Shown: one piece after another, positions 49,846 to 55,304 of the stretch
How positions within the stretch are numbered: the stretch's first letter is position 1
Layout: each line of letters starts with the position of its first letter
NCBI GenBank assembly: GCA_016458225.1
Contig: JAEMGR010000003.1
Span: 124,001 to 188,000, forward strand
Length of the DNA: 64,000 bases
DNA from: Myxococcaceae bacterium JPH2
GTDB lineage: Bacteria > Myxococcota > Myxococcia > Myxococcales > Myxococcaceae
Direction: 5' to 3'
Notes under the pieces: model-generated
Databases searched by the model: none
What the model was told of the DNA's origin: nothing
Seen by the model: the letters and a program-made list of their open reading frames with translations, nothing else
Made by a program: the position numbers and the translations under genes

Positions 49846-51234
49846 TCAGCGCGAGGCGGCCTGGCTGAGCGCCCGGTGCACGGCCTCCAGCGCCTTGCGG
49901 GCCTCGAGCAGCTCGGCGCGCTCGGAGGTGAGCGAGGCCACCTGCTGCGCCAGCACGTCGCGCTCACCCTGGAGCGTCTCCACGGCGCGGCGCAGGGAAG
50001 CGGACTCGTCCTTGGCGCCCTCCAGCTCCGAGGCGAGGCGCTCCTCCTCCGCGAGGCTGTCCGCCAGGGCCTGCTTGCCGCGGACCACCTCGACCTCCAG
50101 GCTCTCGTGCTCCTTCGCCGCGGCCTGGAGCGCCTGACGCGACTCCTGGAGGGACAGCAGCGCCTCGTCGCGCTCGCCCTCCAGCGCCGCCAGCTCGCGC
50201 TCCAGGTCGGCCAGCAGCTTCACGCGGCCTTCCATCTCCGAGGACAGCCGGCGCGCCTCGTCCATGCGCAGGCGGGCTTCCTCGGTGGCCTTCTCGGCCT
50301 GACGCCGCGTGGCCTCCAGGTCCTGCGTGAGGGTGAGGTTGAGGGACTTCACCCGCGTCAGCTCGGCCTGGAGGGTGGTGATGCGCTCCACCGCGCGCTG
50401 GCCAGCCTCCGCCACCGTGGCGGGCAGCGGCTCCGGGCGCGGGTTCTCGCGCACCGCCTTGAGGCGGGCCTTGAGCCGCTCACGCCGGGAGTCCGCGTCC
50501 AGGGCCTCCTCGCGCGGCGCGGCGGGCTGCTGCACTTCCACCTCCGCGGGCGGCGCCTCCGTCCGGGCCACCGTCTCGACACGGGAGGTCACAGCGGTTT
50601 GCGCGGGAGCGAAGGTCATCATGGGCGCAACCTCGTGGACGGCGGGCGGGGCGGAGACGACCGGAAGCGCTTCAGCGGCGGCCCACGGCGGGGCGGGCGC
50701 GGCGAACGCCCTGGGAGCCGGCTCGGCGAACGCCATCGGAGCGGGCTCGGGCTCGGCCGCCATCGAGGGCGGCGGCGACGCGTACGTCACCGCCATCTCC
50801 CGTGCCGGCGCGGCCTCGCGCTCCCAGGTGGGCGCGACGGCGACGGGCTCCTGCCACGGCGTCTCGGGGACCTCCCACGACTCGGCGGGCGGGGACACCA
50901 GCGCGGACAGCGCGTGGGCCACGGGCGCGGGCATGGTCGGCGCGGGGGCGGGCTCGGCGGGCCGAGTCAGCAGGGCAGAGGGCACGGCCGGCGCGCGCAG
51001 GGCGGCCTCCATCGCCTCGGCGGCGGTGGGGCGCGGGGCGCGGTTGCGCTCGATGCGCGCGCGCACCTCGGCGGAGAGGTCCGGCGCCTCGGCCACGGGC
51101 GGCGGAAGGACCGCGGCGACCTCGGGCTCGGGCATCGCGGCCTGGGGCTCCACCGGGTCGAACGCGCCGGTCAGCGCCCCCAGGCGGAGGCGCGGCTTGG
51201 CGCGGGACACGTTCTGTTCGAAGGCTTTCTTCAT
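49846..51234 (-). CDS. pomX: PomX, PomZ-activating scaffold for midcell division
   Basis: A 462-aa protein. I chose ATG 51234 because it restores the conserved N-terminus MKKAFEQNVSRAKPRLRLGA; the GTG at 51237 would add one residue. This 22-residue peptide is known in M. xanthus to stimulate PomZ ATPase, and its key residues Lys13 and Arg15 are present. Residues about 30-235 are Pro/Ala-rich and disordered; residues about 240-460 form a long coiled coil (ERITTLQAELTRVKSLNLTLTQDLEATRRQ onward). It is longer than M. xanthus PomX (404 aa), mainly in the linker. It polymerises and, with PomY and PomZ, guides FtsZ ring placement. Confidence 0.95.
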   Translation of the reverse strand: MKKAFEQNVSRAKPRLRLGALTGAFDPVEPQAAMPEPEVAAVLPPPVAEAPDLSAEVRARIERNRAPRPTAAEAMEAALRAPAVPSALLTRPAEPAPAPTMPAPVAHALSALVSPPAESWEVPETPWQEPVAVAPTWEREAAPAREMAVTYASPPPSMAAEPEPAPMAFAEPAPRAFAAPAPPWAAAEALPVVSAPPAVHEVAPMMTFAPAQTAVTSRVETVARTEAPPAEVEVQQPAAPREEALDADSRRERLKARLKAVRENPRPEPLPATVAEAGQRAVERITTLQAELTRVKSLNLTLTQDLEATRRQAEKATEEARLRMDEARRLSSEMEGRVKLLADLERELAALEGERDEALLSLQESRQALQAAAKEHESLEVEVVRGKQALADSLAEEERLASELEGAKDESASLRRAVETLQGERDVLAQQVASLTSERAELLEARKALEAVHRALSQAASR

Positions 51235-51243
51235 CACGGGGTC

Positions 51244-52197
51244 TCAGCCTGCGTGGGTGGCGCCGTTCTTCGCGGCGGCGCCCGCTACCAGGCGGGGAAG
51301 GACATTGTCGAGCATGGCCTGGATATCAGTCGCGCCCTTGGAAGTGGGGTCCGCGACGAATACCGGCCGTCCCTCGCTGGAGGCCTGGGCGAACTTGGTG
51401 CACTGCCGGATGATGGTGGGCAGCAGGTACTCTGGGTAGTGCTTCTGGAGGGCCTCCAGCGCTTCCTTGGCCAGCTTGAAGGTCGCGTTGAAGGCATTGA
51501 CCACGATGTAGACGTGGTCGAGCACGTGGTTCAGGTCCTCTTCCAGGCTCTGCACGGTCTCGAAGAGCAGCTTGAGGCCGTGGAAGGACAGGAAGTCCGC
51601 CAGCACGGGCACGAACAGGTCGTTCGCGGCCATCAGGGCGTTGAGGTTGAGCAGGCCGAAGGACGGCGGCGCGTCGAAGATGATGAAGTCGTACTGCGCC
51701 TCGACGTCCTTGAGCGCGTTGCGCAGCTTGAACTCGCGGCCGGCCATGGGCATCAGCGCGAGGTCCATGGTGGACATGCTGAGGTTGGACGGGACGAAGT
51801 CCAGGTTGGGCAGGGTGGACTTCTGGATGACCTGGACCAACGGCGTCTTTCTGACCAGCACGTCCAGCAGCGTCTTCTCGAAGTCCTCGCCCTCGTAGCC
51901 CAGGCACTTGGTGGCGTGCCCCTGGCTGTCGAGGTCGATGAGGAGGACCGCGTAGCCCAGCTCCGCGAGGCGCCAGGCGTAGGACGTGGAGAGGGACGTC
52001 TTGCCGGTGCCGCCCTTGAAGTTGAGGAAGAGCTGACGGCGGTGGCCCACCCGGGGCGGGAAGCGGTCCAGCGTGGTGCGCAGCTCCCAGATGTCGTCCG
52101 GACCGTACGCGTCCTTCCGCATCCCCTCGGGAATCTCCTTGGGGGACACGCCGAGCATCTCGGCCACCTGCTTCGAGCTGTACGTCGGCGCTTCCAT
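51244..52197 (-). CDS. pomZ: PomZ, ParA/MinD-type ATPase for midcell division
   Basis: A 317-aa protein. ATG 52197 gives MEAPTYSSKQVAEMLGVSPKE, the M. xanthus-like N-terminal MerR-like segment. The residues that define M. xanthus PomZ mutants all fall in place: Gly62 and Lys66 in KGGTGKTS (Walker A, ATP-dependent dimer), Asp90 in LLIDLDSQ (ATP hydrolysis) and Lys268 in QCTKFA (DNA binding). It binds the nucleoid and moves the PomX/PomY cluster to midcell. It lies between pomY and pomX, with gaps of 42 and 9 bases. Confidence 0.97.
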   Translation of the reverse strand: MEAPTYSSKQVAEMLGVSPKEIPEGMRKDAYGPDDIWELRTTLDRFPPRVGHRRQLFLNFKGGTGKTSLSTSYAWRLAELGYAVLLIDLDSQGHATKCLGYEGEDFEKTLLDVLVRKTPLVQVIQKSTLPNLDFVPSNLSMSTMDLALMPMAGREFKLRNALKDVEAQYDFIIFDAPPSFGLLNLNALMAANDLFVPVLADFLSFHGLKLLFETVQSLEEDLNHVLDHVYIVVNAFNATFKLAKEALEALQKHYPEYLLPTIIRQCTKFAQASSEGRPVFVADPTSKGATDIQAMLDNVLPRLVAGAAAKNGATHAG

Positions 52198-52239
52198 GGA
52201 CGACCCTTCGGATGAGGTGCGCGGCACCTGCAACTTGCC

Positions 52240-54366
52240 TCAAGCGGCGAAGTATTTGTGCCCCCTTCGCACAATGGCCCCCCGGGCCACCAGCAGGGCG
52301 AGAGCCTCCTGAGTCAACTCCGCGGGCGAGGACAGGCCGCCCGCCAGCTCCACCAGCGAGCGGCCCCGCACCGCCACGCGGACCTCCGACAGCATCGCGG
52401 CGCAGAGCGACTCCACCGGAGACGGGCCCGGGCGAGGCGCCACAGCACGCGCCTCGGGAGCACCTGCCTCGGGAGCGGGTGCGCGCACCACGGGAGGCGT
52501 GGCCCCCATCGCCACGAGGGCGGCCTGGACCGGGGACATCCGCGCGGCAGGCGGGCGCTGTACGCCACCTGACATTGGGACGGGCTGCGCATGCGCGGGC
52601 GGCATGGAGCTGCCAGCGACCGGCTGACGAGCACCGGCGTTCGCCTGCGGGGGAACCGCACCCGCCCGAGGAGCGCCCGGAGAAGCCTGAGCGGGCGCCT
52701 GCGCCACGACAGCGGGAGCGCCCTGACCGGGCATCGTTGCCCCGACCACCGGGCCCTGAACGCTTGAAGCCGGAGCCGCGCGCCCGCCCTGCGCCATCGC
52801 CACGGGAGCCTGCGCCACGACCGCATGAGCGCCCTGCGCCATCGCCACGGGAGCCTGAACCCCTACTGAGTTCGCGACCTGCGCCATCGCCACGGGAGCC
52901 TGCGCCACGACCGCGGGCGCGCCGACGGGCATCGCGACATTCGCCGGAGCCACCACCGCCTGCACGGCGACGGGCTGAGCAGCGCCACGCACCGCCTCGG
53001 CCTGCACGCTCCCAGGAGCATCGACGCTCGCGACGCCCACGCTCAGCGGTGCACGCTTCGCGACCAGCGGCGTTTCGAGACGCGCGCGCACCGGACGAAT
53101 CGGCAGCGTCGCCAGCCGGCGAATCTCCCGACGACGGTGGGCATCGTCCAGCGCGACCACGAAGGACACGTCCTGGCCCAGGATGCGCGAGAGGCTCTGC
53201 GCGGCGGCCTTGCGCACGCGCGGCTCGGCGTCATCCAGCGCGCCCAGCAGGAGCACCCGGGCGTTCTCCCCTGCCCCAGCCCCCAGCGCCAGCGCGGCCA
53301 GCGAGCGCACTTCCGTGTCGGCGTCGTGGATTGCCTCTTCGCCCAGCCTCCGCGCCGTCTCGCCCTCCAGGCCCAGGGCCAGGAGCGACGCGCGACGACG
53401 CACCGAGCGATCCGGGTCCTTCATCGCCTGCGCCAGATGCGGCGCGGCATCCCGAGGCGCCAGCGTGAGCATCGCCTTGAGCGCCGCGATGCGAACCTCG
53501 GGCACCGGCGACGACATCAGCGGCGACACCACCGATGCGCCCTGCTCCTTGCATAGCCCCGCGAACGCCTGGAGCAATGCAACCTGAGCCGCGGGGTCCG
53601 TCTCCGCATGCAGCGCCGCGGCCAGCGCGGGCGCGGCGGCGGGCTGCGCCAGGGCCTTCAGGCGCTCGGCGGCGCGAACCCGGGCGGCTCCATCCGTCGC
53701 GGACAGCTCACGCACGGAGAAGCCAAAGAGCGTCTCATCCGACGAGCCCGCGAAGCCTCCATGCGCGCTCAGCTCCGCGAGCTGCTCCGCGCTCACGCGC
53801 AGCCGGCCTTCCTGCAACAACCGCTGTGCCTCACGCGCCACGGGCGACAGCGCCACCGCCCCATTGCCAGACGCCGACGCGGGCGCCACAGGCGTGGCAG
53901 CGGCATCAACGACCGGCCCCCACGGAACAGCCGCACCCTTCGCGACGGGCACCAGCACCGGCGCCGTCTCACCGCGCAGGATGGCCTCGCTGCGAAGCTG
54001 CGAGATGAACGACGCGAGATCAAACCCCAGCTCGTCGTCCACGTCCCGCGACATGCCCGAGGAGTGGATCCGGCTGGCATCCAGCAGCTTGCCCATGAGC
54101 TGATCGCGCTCCAGGCGCAGCGCCTGATTCAAGCGGGACAGCTCGTCGCGCTCGGCCTGCATGCGGCCGGTGCGCACCTCCACCTCGGCCAGCTCGCGGC
54201 GCATCTCCAGGTCACGCTGGCGCGCCTCGGACAGCTCGCGCTTGAGGTGCTCGATCTCCTCGCGCGTCCCGTCCAGCTCGCCGTGGAGCTGCTCCGCACG
54301 GGCCTCGAAGTAGACGATCTTTTCGAGTGCGCTCCTCAGCAGCGCGTCCGGACGCTCGTCACTCAC
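52240..54366 (-). CDS. pomY: PomY, PomZ-activating partner with HEAT repeats
   Basis: A 708-aa protein; GTG 54366 is the likely start (MSDERPDALLRSALEKIVYFEARAEQL; GGGGAGG 12 bases upstream), while the ATG at 54462 adds an unlikely basic tail. Order of parts: N-terminal coiled coil (about 10-105), a linker, HEAT repeats (about 200-420, for example VPEVRIAALKAMLTLAPRDAAPHLAQAMKDPDRSVRRRASLLAL), a Pro/Ala-rich disordered region (about 430-640) and a C-terminal globular end. This is the known PomY layout (682 aa in M. xanthus), which forms condensates that bind FtsZ. The disordered part contains a 15-residue repeat. Confidence 0.94.
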   Translation of the reverse strand: MSDERPDALLRSALEKIVYFEARAEQLHGELDGTREEIEHLKRELSEARQRDLEMRRELAEVEVRTGRMQAERDELSRLNQALRLERDQLMGKLLDASRIHSSGMSRDVDDELGFDLASFISQLRSEAILRGETAPVLVPVAKGAAVPWGPVVDAAATPVAPASASGNGAVALSPVAREAQRLLQEGRLRVSAEQLAELSAHGGFAGSSDETLFGFSVRELSATDGAARVRAAERLKALAQPAAAPALAAALHAETDPAAQVALLQAFAGLCKEQGASVVSPLMSSPVPEVRIAALKAMLTLAPRDAAPHLAQAMKDPDRSVRRRASLLALGLEGETARRLGEEAIHDADTEVRSLAALALGAGAGENARVLLLGALDDAEPRVRKAAAQSLSRILGQDVSFVVALDDAHRRREIRRLATLPIRPVRARLETPLVAKRAPLSVGVASVDAPGSVQAEAVRGAAQPVAVQAVVAPANVAMPVGAPAVVAQAPVAMAQVANSVGVQAPVAMAQGAHAVVAQAPVAMAQGGRAAPASSVQGPVVGATMPGQGAPAVVAQAPAQASPGAPRAGAVPPQANAGARQPVAGSSMPPAHAQPVPMSGGVQRPPAARMSPVQAALVAMGATPPVVRAPAPEAGAPEARAVAPRPGPSPVESLCAAMLSEVRVAVRGRSLVELAGGLSSPAELTQEALALLVARGAIVRRGHKYFAA
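52789..52923. repeat. Three 45-bp tandem repeats inside pomY
   Basis: Units start at 52789, 52834 and 52879. Each contains an identical 24-base core beginning CTGCGCCATCGCCACGGGAG. They encode three 15-residue copies around QAPVAMAQ in the disordered PomY region. Confidence 0.85.
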
Positions 54367-54932
54367 GACCTGTGCTGGCCTCCCCGAGAAGCGCCTCACG
54401 CGCCCCCGGTTCGCGTTGCCGGATGGGGCTCCGGACACCCGGCACACACCGGGGTTGGGCACCTTACTTCAGGGGGACGTGCGACGTAAACCCCGGAAAC
54501 ACCAGGGGTTTTCCGTTCAGGTCCTCCGGAAAGATTGACAACGCGTCCCAGGCCGATTTTTCGGCCCCGCGCCGACTCGGTGGATCTCACGCCCCCCCTG
54601 CACATCCCGCGCGCGCCACCCCACGCGAGCCCGTCCACTCGGCACCCGCCGCCACGAGGCACGCCCGCTCGCGCGCCCCACGCGATGCCCCGCCGCACGT
54701 CCTCCGCGGGCCTCACCACGACTCAAGGAAGCCAAGAAACCCAGGTGCGACAGAAAGGGCCCGCGCACTGCGTTTTCACCGCGTTACGCACGCCTGCCCG
54801 CACGCGCCGAGATGTCAGACCCCGCTCGTAATGTCTGTGTCACGAGGTAGCGCATCACCTCCACTTCGCCCCGGAACCTCTCCGCTCTTTTCGCGGGGGG
54901 CGAAGGCCCTCTTTTCCCAGGTTTCCCAAGCC
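54367..54932. other. 566-bp divergent non-coding stretch between pomY and XRE gene
   Basis: This holds the promoters of the pom cluster (minus) and of the XRE gene (plus). AAACCCC (54488-54494) and GGGGTTT (54505-54511) form an interrupted palindrome with a 10-bp spacer. TTGACA occurs at 54535-54540 on the plus strand but no good -10 box follows at the right distance. ORFs through the stretch lack ribosome sites. Confidence 0.5.
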
Positions 54933-55304
54933 ATGGAACAACGACTGGCAACCATCATTGGAAACGCTGTTCGCGCGGCCCGTCAGCGATTGGAGCTGAC
55001 CCAGGCGGACGTCGCTGAGCGCGTCGGTATCGCGACCGAGGTGTATGGACGCCTCGAGCGCGGCCACATGCTGCCCAGCGTCCGCACGCTGCGGAAGCTG
55101 TGCCTCGTCCTCAACGCCTCTTCGGATGTGCTGCTCGGTCTGAGCGCGACGACGACGGTGGAAGGCAGCGCGCCCCAGCTCGCGGAGGATCCGCCCGAGT
55201 ACCGCGAGCGCCCCGAGGTGCGTCGGCTGATGCGCACCGTGCGCAAGCTCGATTCCCCCCGGCTGCGGCTCTTGGGTCAGGTGGCGCACGCACTGGAGCG
55301 ATGA
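54933..55304 (+). CDS. XRE-family helix-turn-helix regulator
   Basis: A 123-aa protein. The N-terminal half is an XRE/Cro-type helix-turn-helix (NAVRAARQRLELTQADVAERVGIATEVYGRLERGHMLPSVRTLRKLCLVLNAS, about residues 11-64). The C-terminal part (PEVRRLMRTVRKLDSPRLRLLGQVAHAL) is helical and may dimerise. The start is not fixed by a ribosome site: ATG 54933 gives a canonical start, and an in-frame ATG lies at 54831. It is divergent from pomY, so it may control the pom genes, itself, or neither. Confidence 0.85.
   Translation: MEQRLATIIGNAVRAARQRLELTQADVAERVGIATEVYGRLERGHMLPSVRTLRKLCLVLNASSDVLLGLSATTTVEGSAPQLAEDPPEYRERPEVRRLMRTVRKLDSPRLRLLGQVAHALER

What the first reader, a model, noticed from the sequence alone, without database searches (positions are those of the whole stretch)
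49846..54366. Complete pomY-pomZ-pomX midcell positioning cluster with all known key residues
PomZ has Gly62, Lys66, Asp90 and Lys268 at exactly the M. xanthus positions, and PomX has its N-terminal activating peptide with Lys13 and Arg15. PomX is about 58 residues longer than in M. xanthus, mostly in the disordered linker. This places the organism among myxobacteria and offers a natural variant for studying linker length.
Basis: partly seen in the sequence, partly recalled or inferred. Interest (0 to 1): 0.65.

Follow-up and report, generated by a model that had tools for sequence, protein, structure and literature searches.

The report
Midcell-positioning genes with unsuspected distant relatives
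The window holds an ordinary, intact copy of the three genes that myxobacteria use to place the cell division site, but searching outward from it shows that a similar gene set, with the same kind of activating peptide, also occurs in other bacterial phyla, including planctomycetes in which no FtsZ division protein was found.

Summary
Confirmed: window 49846-54366 (minus strand) encodes pomY-pomZ-pomX of a Citreicoccus-like myxobacterium. PomZ is 90% identical to that of Myxococcus xanthus AM003; PomX K13/R15 and PomZ G62/K66/D90/K268 are as stated. The longer PomX linker is ordinary: 462 aa ranks 41st of 52 (329-835 aa), and length variation is published.

New: (1) Complete clusters occur in other Myxococcota classes; in family f16 PomY ends after its HEAT repeats and lacks the activator region. 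(2) 24 of 395 sampled genomes of a Desulfobacterota-type phylum carry HEAT protein - PomZ-like - PomX-like in the same order. (3) 11 of 246 sampled Planctomycetota genomes carry a PomZ-like gene; in 10 the next gene begins with a PomX-type peptide, usually without a HEAT gene, and no FtsZ was found. A motif fixed beforehand recovered the peptide in 15 of 18, then 6 of 6, unseen loci. Reading: Pom is one branch of an older ParA/activator-peptide positioning system; PomY's activator role came late. Function outside M. xanthus is untested. The novelty section refers to this wider family; the window cluster alone is a new member.

The parts
49846..51234 (-). pomX, 462 aa
   Evidence: ORF with ATG; 65% identity to PomX of M. 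xanthus AM003 over full length
51169..51234 (-). PomX activating peptide (NPEP, residues 1-22) with K13 and R15
   Evidence: sequence; the same 17-aa start in many other Myxococcaceae; role from PMC7993993
50509..51168 (-). PomX Pro/Ala-rich linker (about residues 23-242); holds a 24-bp tandem repeat at 50689-50750
   Evidence: 47% Pro+Ala; gaps against M. xanthus AM003 lie here; repeat
49849..50508 (-). PomX C-terminal coiled coil (about residues 243-462)
   Evidence: colinear, high identity with M. xanthus AM003
49867..49893 (-). PomX C-terminal motif ALEAVHRAL, shared with PomX-like proteins of other phyla
   Evidence: 21 of 22 Myxococcota and 15 of 21 Desulfobacterota/Planctomycetota type A proteins (motif written after seeing the sequences; strict form 1 of 6 in later loci)
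51244..52197 (-). pomZ, 317 aa ParA/MinD ATPase; G62, K66, D90, K268
52033..52197 (-). PomZ N-terminal domain, probably a degenerate MerR-type helix-turn-helix
   Evidence: AlphaFold2 model pLDDT 78.8; Foldseek hits mostly MerR-type but none significant; MerR_1 hits in PomZ-like relatives
51997..52017 (-). PomZ P-loop KGGTGKT
52240..54366 (-). pomY, 708 aa (GTG start)
53179..53631 (-). PomY HEAT repeats (Pfam hits span residues 246-396)
   Evidence: HEAT_2 3.4e-14, HEAT 7e-12
52507..52530 (-). PomY alpha5 VQAALVAM (residues 613-620), predicted PomZ-binding helix
   Evidence: role predicted in PMC13170346
52243..52413 (-). PomY gD winged-helix domain (last 57 residues)
   Evidence: gD profile hit 1.6e-26 (the profile was seeded from this protein, so not independent for it)
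52785..52914 (-). 45-bp tandem repeat in the PomY disordered region
54864..55304 (+). divergent XRE regulator beside pomY, probable DdiA homologue
   Evidence: HTH_3 1.5e-12; in M. xanthus ddiA lies adjacent to pomXYZ (PMC12288472, passage); homology to DdiA itself not tested

Best explanation
The window holds a complete orthologous PomXYZ division-site positioning cluster. By transfer from M. xanthus: PomX forms the scaffold through its coiled coil, PomY joins it as a condensate that enriches FtsZ, ATP-bound PomZ dimers tether the assembly to the nucleoid, and the PomX peptide together with the PomY C-terminal region (alpha5 + gD) trigger PomZ ATP hydrolysis, so that the assembly moves to midcell (inferred here, shown in M. 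xanthus). The cluster belongs to a wider family, not reported in the papers I could search: a ParA ATPase, mostly with a MerR-like N-terminal domain, followed by a protein that starts with a PomX-type activating peptide and ends in a conserved coiled-coil tail or a membrane anchor, and in Desulfobacterota (and one planctomycete) preceded by a HEAT-repeat protein in the position of pomY. PomY's coiled coil and activator region look like later additions to a HEAT core; this order of events is inference.
For: Window. Wider family: the PomZ-like protein of G231 is 46% identical to the window's PomZ, N-terminal domain included, and the Desulfobacterota ones match a PomZ-based profile over nearly its whole length at E 2.4e-128 or better. 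In a 76-row tree the 58 PomZ-like rows split from 18 other ParA-type rows with 97/97 support. Upstream HEAT gene in 23 of 24 Desulfobacterota loci, the exception being a contig end. NPEP motif fixed found in the gene after PomZ in 15 of 18 unseen loci (17 hits in 1687 ORFs, 0.48 expected) and 6 of 6 later loci (6 hits in 590 ORFs, all there). NPEP-pocket residues of PomZ (F202, aromatic 205, E219, A249, Y254, aromatic 257, S274) are kept in 18 of 18 Desulfobacterota rows but not in most other ParAs. ruvB lies next to the cluster in one Desulfobacterota and one Planctomycetota genome.
Against: No experiment outside M. xanthus. A blind 22-residue profile from Myxococcota NPEPs alone gave no significant hit in the other phyla (best on-target E 0.11; an off-target ORF scored 0.084; shuffles 0.36). 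HEAT repeats and coiled coils are common folds, so HEAT neighbours alone would not prove PomY homology. At K13 the distant peptides of type A and Desulfobacterota have M or other residues, and position 15 is not always basic; PomZ E275 and E256 of the pocket are not kept. The outgroup of the tree has long branches.
Confidence: 0.86

Rival explanations
1. The distant loci are unrelated ParA cargo-positioning systems: ParA activators often have short basic N-terminal peptides, so the peptide is convergent and the HEAT neighbour a coincidence.
For: Myxococcota-only peptide profile not significant elsewhere; short basic N-terminal activator peptides are common to ParA/MinD systems (PMC7993993).
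Against: PomZ similarity over the whole length with the same N-terminal domain, tree split 97/97, same HEAT-ParA-peptide order in 23 of 24 loci, PomX-type C-terminal tail, peptide pocket residues kept.
Confidence: 0.1
2. The clusters outside Myxococcales are contamination of metagenome-assembled genomes by myxobacterial DNA.
For: Many of these genomes are drafts in many contigs; L099/G177 lies on a 7.2-kb contig of a 75% complete genome.
Against: G044 carries it on a 920-kb contig; G578 on a 496-kb contig; the distant proteins form their own supported clades, and G231's is only 46% identical to the window's PomZ.
Confidence: 0.04
3. In Planctomycetota the PomZ/PomX-like pair positions something other than the division site, such as a secretion system or a membrane complex.
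For: Six of ten PomX-like proteins end in a hydrophobic C-terminal segment; in G200 the PomZ-like gene lies near genes whose translations I read as gspD and gspE (by eye); no FtsZ found in 12 of 12 genomes.
Against: No cargo identified; neighbourhoods differ from genome to genome.
Confidence: 0.5
4. The longer PomX linker of the window is a functional adaptation.
For: PomX and PomY ORF lengths correlate across 52 loci (rho 0.54).
Against: Correlation not corrected for relatedness; the linkers hold tandem repeats that suffice to explain length drift; 11 of 52 loci have a longer PomX.
Confidence: 0.1

Closest known systems
PomXYZ of Myxococcus xanthus
   Same: gene order, PomZ residues, PomX peptide and coiled coil, PomY HEAT, alpha5 and gD
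   Different: window: PomX +58 aa in the linker. Relatives: f16 PomY lacks the C-terminal activator region; Desulfobacterota have a HEAT-only protein; Planctomycetota mostly have no HEAT neighbour
MinD/MinE and ParA/ParB systems
   Same: P-loop ATPase with an activator peptide (PMC7993993; PMC13170346)
   Different: no N-terminal peptide plus coiled-coil tail of PomX type (recalled); other ParA-type proteins from the searched genomes fall outside the PomZ clade
Carboxysome McdA/McdB and chemoreceptor ParC/ParP positioning (recalled, not searched)
   Same: ParA ATPase that moves a protein cargo over the nucleoid
   Different: no HEAT partner and other cargo (recalled)

Membership tests
PomXYZ, window cluster | PomZ orthologue with P-loop, D90 and K268 | tested here: met
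PomXYZ, window cluster | PomX with NPEP (K13, R15) and C-terminal coiled coil | tested here: met
PomXYZ, window cluster | PomY with HEAT repeats, alpha5 and gD | tested here: met
PomXYZ, window cluster | N-terminal coiled coil of PomY | tested here: met
   residues 16-433 colinear with M. xanthus AM003 at 75%; coiled coil not predicted separately
PomXYZ, window cluster | places the Z-ring at midcell | not testable with these tools
   needs genetics
PomXYZ, f16 clusters (G052, G177/L099) | PomY C-terminal activator region (alpha5, gD) | tested here: not met
   PomY ends after HEAT in both; PomZ, PomX peptide and gene order met
PomXYZ, Desulfobacterota clusters | order HEAT protein - PomZ - NPEP coiled coil | tested here: met
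   HEAT 23 of 24; NPEP regex 15 of 18 and 6 of 6
PomXYZ, Desulfobacterota clusters | PomY architecture (coiled coil, IDR, gD) around HEAT | tested here: not met
   upstream ORFs of the loci read are about 225-275 aa; the profile matches only with its HEAT part, about positions 196-405. So I call it Pom-like, not PomXYZ
PomXYZ, Planctomycetota loci | HEAT/PomY gene in the cluster | tested here: not met
   in the cluster in 1 of 11 (G222), one more HEAT gene 6.4 kb away (L196); one locus untestable at a contig end
PomXYZ, Planctomycetota loci | FtsZ as cargo | tested here: not met
   no FtsZ in 12 of 12 and 10 of 10; the same searches ring in 13 of 14 known control genomes; completeness of these 12 genomes was not told

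The most novel reading that the evidence does not exclude
PomXYZ is one lineage of an older ParA / activator-peptide positioning system spread over at least three phyla. In Desulfobacterota it is a HEAT - PomZ - PomX module beside FtsZ; in FtsZ-less Planctomycetota a stripped PomZ/PomX pair, soluble or membrane-anchored, positions an unknown cargo, possibly the unidentified FtsZ-independent division apparatus. The two-activator design of M. xanthus arose later, when a HEAT partner gained a coiled coil and a C-terminal activator region, with alpha5 the newest part.
Probability: 0.6. Interest if true: 0.85.

Novelty: new variant of a known kind. Interest (0 to 1): 0.62.

Why it matters
How FtsZ-less planctomycetes choose and build their division site is open (PMC6952346, passages). 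A PomZ/PomX-type pair in such genomes gives a concrete candidate to delete and tag, though its cargo is unknown. The HEAT-only and activator-less partners give natural single-activator systems with which to ask what the second activator of PomZ adds, a question raised by PMC13170346. For the window alone the interest is low: it is an intact ordinary orthologue.

Tried and rejected
Linker-length story: rejected as special; the length ranks 41st of 52 and 11 loci are longer. The PomX/PomY length correlation (rho 0.54) is reported but not corrected for relatedness.

Blind peptide profile: a 22-column profile from 36 distinct Myxococcota NPEPs did not reach significance in 2126 ORFs of the other phyla; I rely instead on a regular expression written after seeing Planctomycetota loci, then tested unchanged on loci not seen before.

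C-terminal motif: written after seeing the sequences; the strict form held in only 1 of 6 later loci, whose tails are SF.EV+ESL or TLEQVHASL variants. Suggestive only.

Other searches: the phylum of G199 gave 0 of 82 (the tool notes that an empty answer without a positive control shows nothing). A class-level search around G231 held only 4 genomes, 3 with a match. The ParA genes next to ruvB without the N-terminal domain (L255, L256) group with the PomZ-like side of the tree on a long branch and were left out of the counts, as were two further genomes with such partial matches (G456, G589; not fetched). L207 (a different ATPase by its sequence) and L200 (truncated) were dropped from the tree. 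L242 was left out of the C-terminal test, and L159 of that list did not pass the script's own filter.

PomY without gD: L130 and L167 (family f7) and L176 (G105) also lack a gD hit; I did not resolve whether these are losses, frameshifts or wrong ORFs, so only the two f16 cases are used.

Fold of the PomZ N-terminal domain: Foldseek hits are mostly MerR-type but none has E below 0.2.
Full report
What is in the window. The three reading frames are as described: PomX 49846-51234, PomZ 51244-52197 and PomY 52240-54366, all on the minus strand. Compared with Myxococcus xanthus AM003 (L074), PomX is 65% identical over its full length with the gaps in the linker, PomZ 90%, and PomY 75% over its coiled-coil and HEAT part. 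The genome is a 9.0-Mb draft; the nearest named relative is Citreicoccus inhibens, with 98% PomZ identity. Beside pomY lies a divergent XRE regulator, probably the DdiA gene, which in M. xanthus lies adjacent to pomXYZ (PMC12288472, passage read).

In M. xanthus PomZ has two activators; the second is the C-terminal region of PomY with helix alpha5 and the gD domain (PMC13170346; I read the abstract, sections 5 and 24, the first parts of sections 13 and 15, and found passages). Both are intact here. Among 85 Myxococcota loci with a readable upstream ORF (86 given; L070 had none; named and unnamed copies of one species not merged), gD was found in 80 and the exact alpha5 octapeptide in 27, the latter in Citreicoccus, Corallococcus, Myxococcus and Pyxidicoccus, one unclassified Myxococcaceae genome and one record named Comamonas. 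Hyalangium and genera g15 and g16 have a recognisable variant. So alpha5 looks younger than gD. This is inference from presence and absence.

Linker length. Over 52 loci PomX ranges from 329 to 835 aa, median 403; the window's 462 ranks 41st. Both disordered regions hold tandem repeats (24 bp in pomX, 45 bp in pomY), a simple source of length drift. That PomX homologues differ in length is already in print (PMC7993993, Results part 1).

Beyond the order. A PomZ profile found 133 of 195 Myxococcota genomes at E <= 1e-70; 130 lie in the window's order and three outside it: G044 (family f11) and G052 and G177 (family f16; G177 matches named record L099). All three have the order pomY-pomZ-pomX with an NPEP-like start of PomX. 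G044 carries the cluster on a 920-kb contig. In f16 PomY ends after its HEAT repeats and lacks the activator region. [quoted passage not shown]

Desulfobacterota. All 24 loci were fetched. A profile of the myxobacterial PomY core finds a HEAT protein directly upstream in 23; the 24th is at a contig end. The profile matches only with its HEAT part. The gene after pomZ, or the second one after it, starts with a PomX-like peptide such as MKDGFDKSVAEKMPKIQRKRP and continues as a coiled coil (coiled coil judged by eye). In one subgroup a small gene in between carries a similar start (MTDEFTNNVAQKFP), a candidate second activator. FtsZ is present in 17 of 18 of these genomes (16 over the cut-off; the six later genomes were not tested).

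Planctomycetota. In the phylum of the MAG L107 (titled Candidatus Brocadiia; same caution) 11 of 246 genomes match at E <= 1e-60. In 10 of the 11 loci the next gene has the peptide (eight by the stricter motif). Four are soluble coiled coils (type A), six are short proteins with a hydrophobic segment at the C-terminus (type B). A HEAT gene lies in the cluster only in G222, which also has ruvB upstream, as has the Desulfobacterota genome G451. No FtsZ model hit any of these 11 genomes or a twelfth without PomZ (10 of 10), in line with the printed statement that FtsZ is not found in Planctomycetes (PMC6952346, passages).

How strong is the peptide evidence? A profile of Myxococcota peptides alone was not significant in the other phyla, and I state that as a failure. 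The regular expression written for the Planctomycetota loci was then applied unchanged to 18 Desulfobacterota loci: 17 hits in 1687 ORFs against 0.48 expected by shuffling, 15 of them in the gene after pomZ, covering 15 of 18 loci. I had looked at short versions of eight of these loci and nine longer ones before running it, but did not change the expression. The other three loci have I, or another residue, at one position. Applied again to six loci fetched later it gave six hits in 590 ORFs, all in the gene after pomZ. These loci are related to each other, so they are not independent events.

Independent support. In a tree of 76 ATPases the 58 PomZ-like rows are separated from 18 other ParA-type rows with 97/97 support, and the 30 Desulfobacterota and Planctomycetota rows form one side of a branch with 100/94 (long outgroup branches, ingroup chosen by score). 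The residues of PomZ that PMC13170346 predicts to hold the PomX peptide are largely kept in Desulfobacterota and type A Planctomycetota and not in the other ParAs. The predicted alpha5 pocket is kept there too although no alpha5 is known there, and is changed in type B Planctomycetota: the pocket may be older than alpha5.

Limits. K268, the DNA-binding lysine, is Q or R in 4 of 25 Myxococcales rows and T in one of three rows outside, so it is not invariant. G044 has R13 but L15 in its peptide. Nothing here shows function. That the wider family is unreported rests on searches of an open-licence library; PMC11271474 and PMC4672049, which those searches turned up, only cite PomZ in the passages I read. 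The 2013 and 2017 founding papers were not read; of PMC10307791 I saw the abstract and outline only.

Noticed in passing
L229-L234 and L236 (G587, G705, G454, G528, G639, G558, G684): Between pomZ and the PomX-like gene these Desulfobacterota loci have a small gene (about 114 aa) starting like MTDEFTNNVAQKFPNT...KPWDV, a second peptide of similar type: a candidate second activator.
   Followed up: partly
PomZ residues L139, L146, L182, L185, D221: The predicted alpha5 pocket of PomZ is conserved in Desulfobacterota and type A Planctomycetota, where I know of no alpha5, and is altered in type B Planctomycetota.
   Followed up: partly
L193 3709-5433; L243 7297-8370; L255; L256: ruvB lies directly upstream of the pom-like genes in one Planctomycetota and one Desulfobacterota genome, and upstream of a shorter ParA in two further Desulfobacterota genomes.
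   Followed up: partly
L122, L118, L099 PomZ: Natural PomZ variants with Q, R or T at the DNA-binding position 268.
   Followed up: no
window 52785-52914 and 50689-50750: Tandem repeats inside the disordered regions of pomY and pomX.
   Followed up: no
L078: A public record titled Comamonas sp. KCTC 72670 carries a Myxococcus-like pom cluster; the label is probably wrong.
   Followed up: no
G001 contigs C47 and C79: pomX of Citreicoccus inhibens appears split over two contig ends in the draft genome.
   Followed up: no
G052:C244:851-1351: A second, divergent FtsZ/tubulin-family hit (58 bits) beside the normal FtsZ.
   Followed up: no
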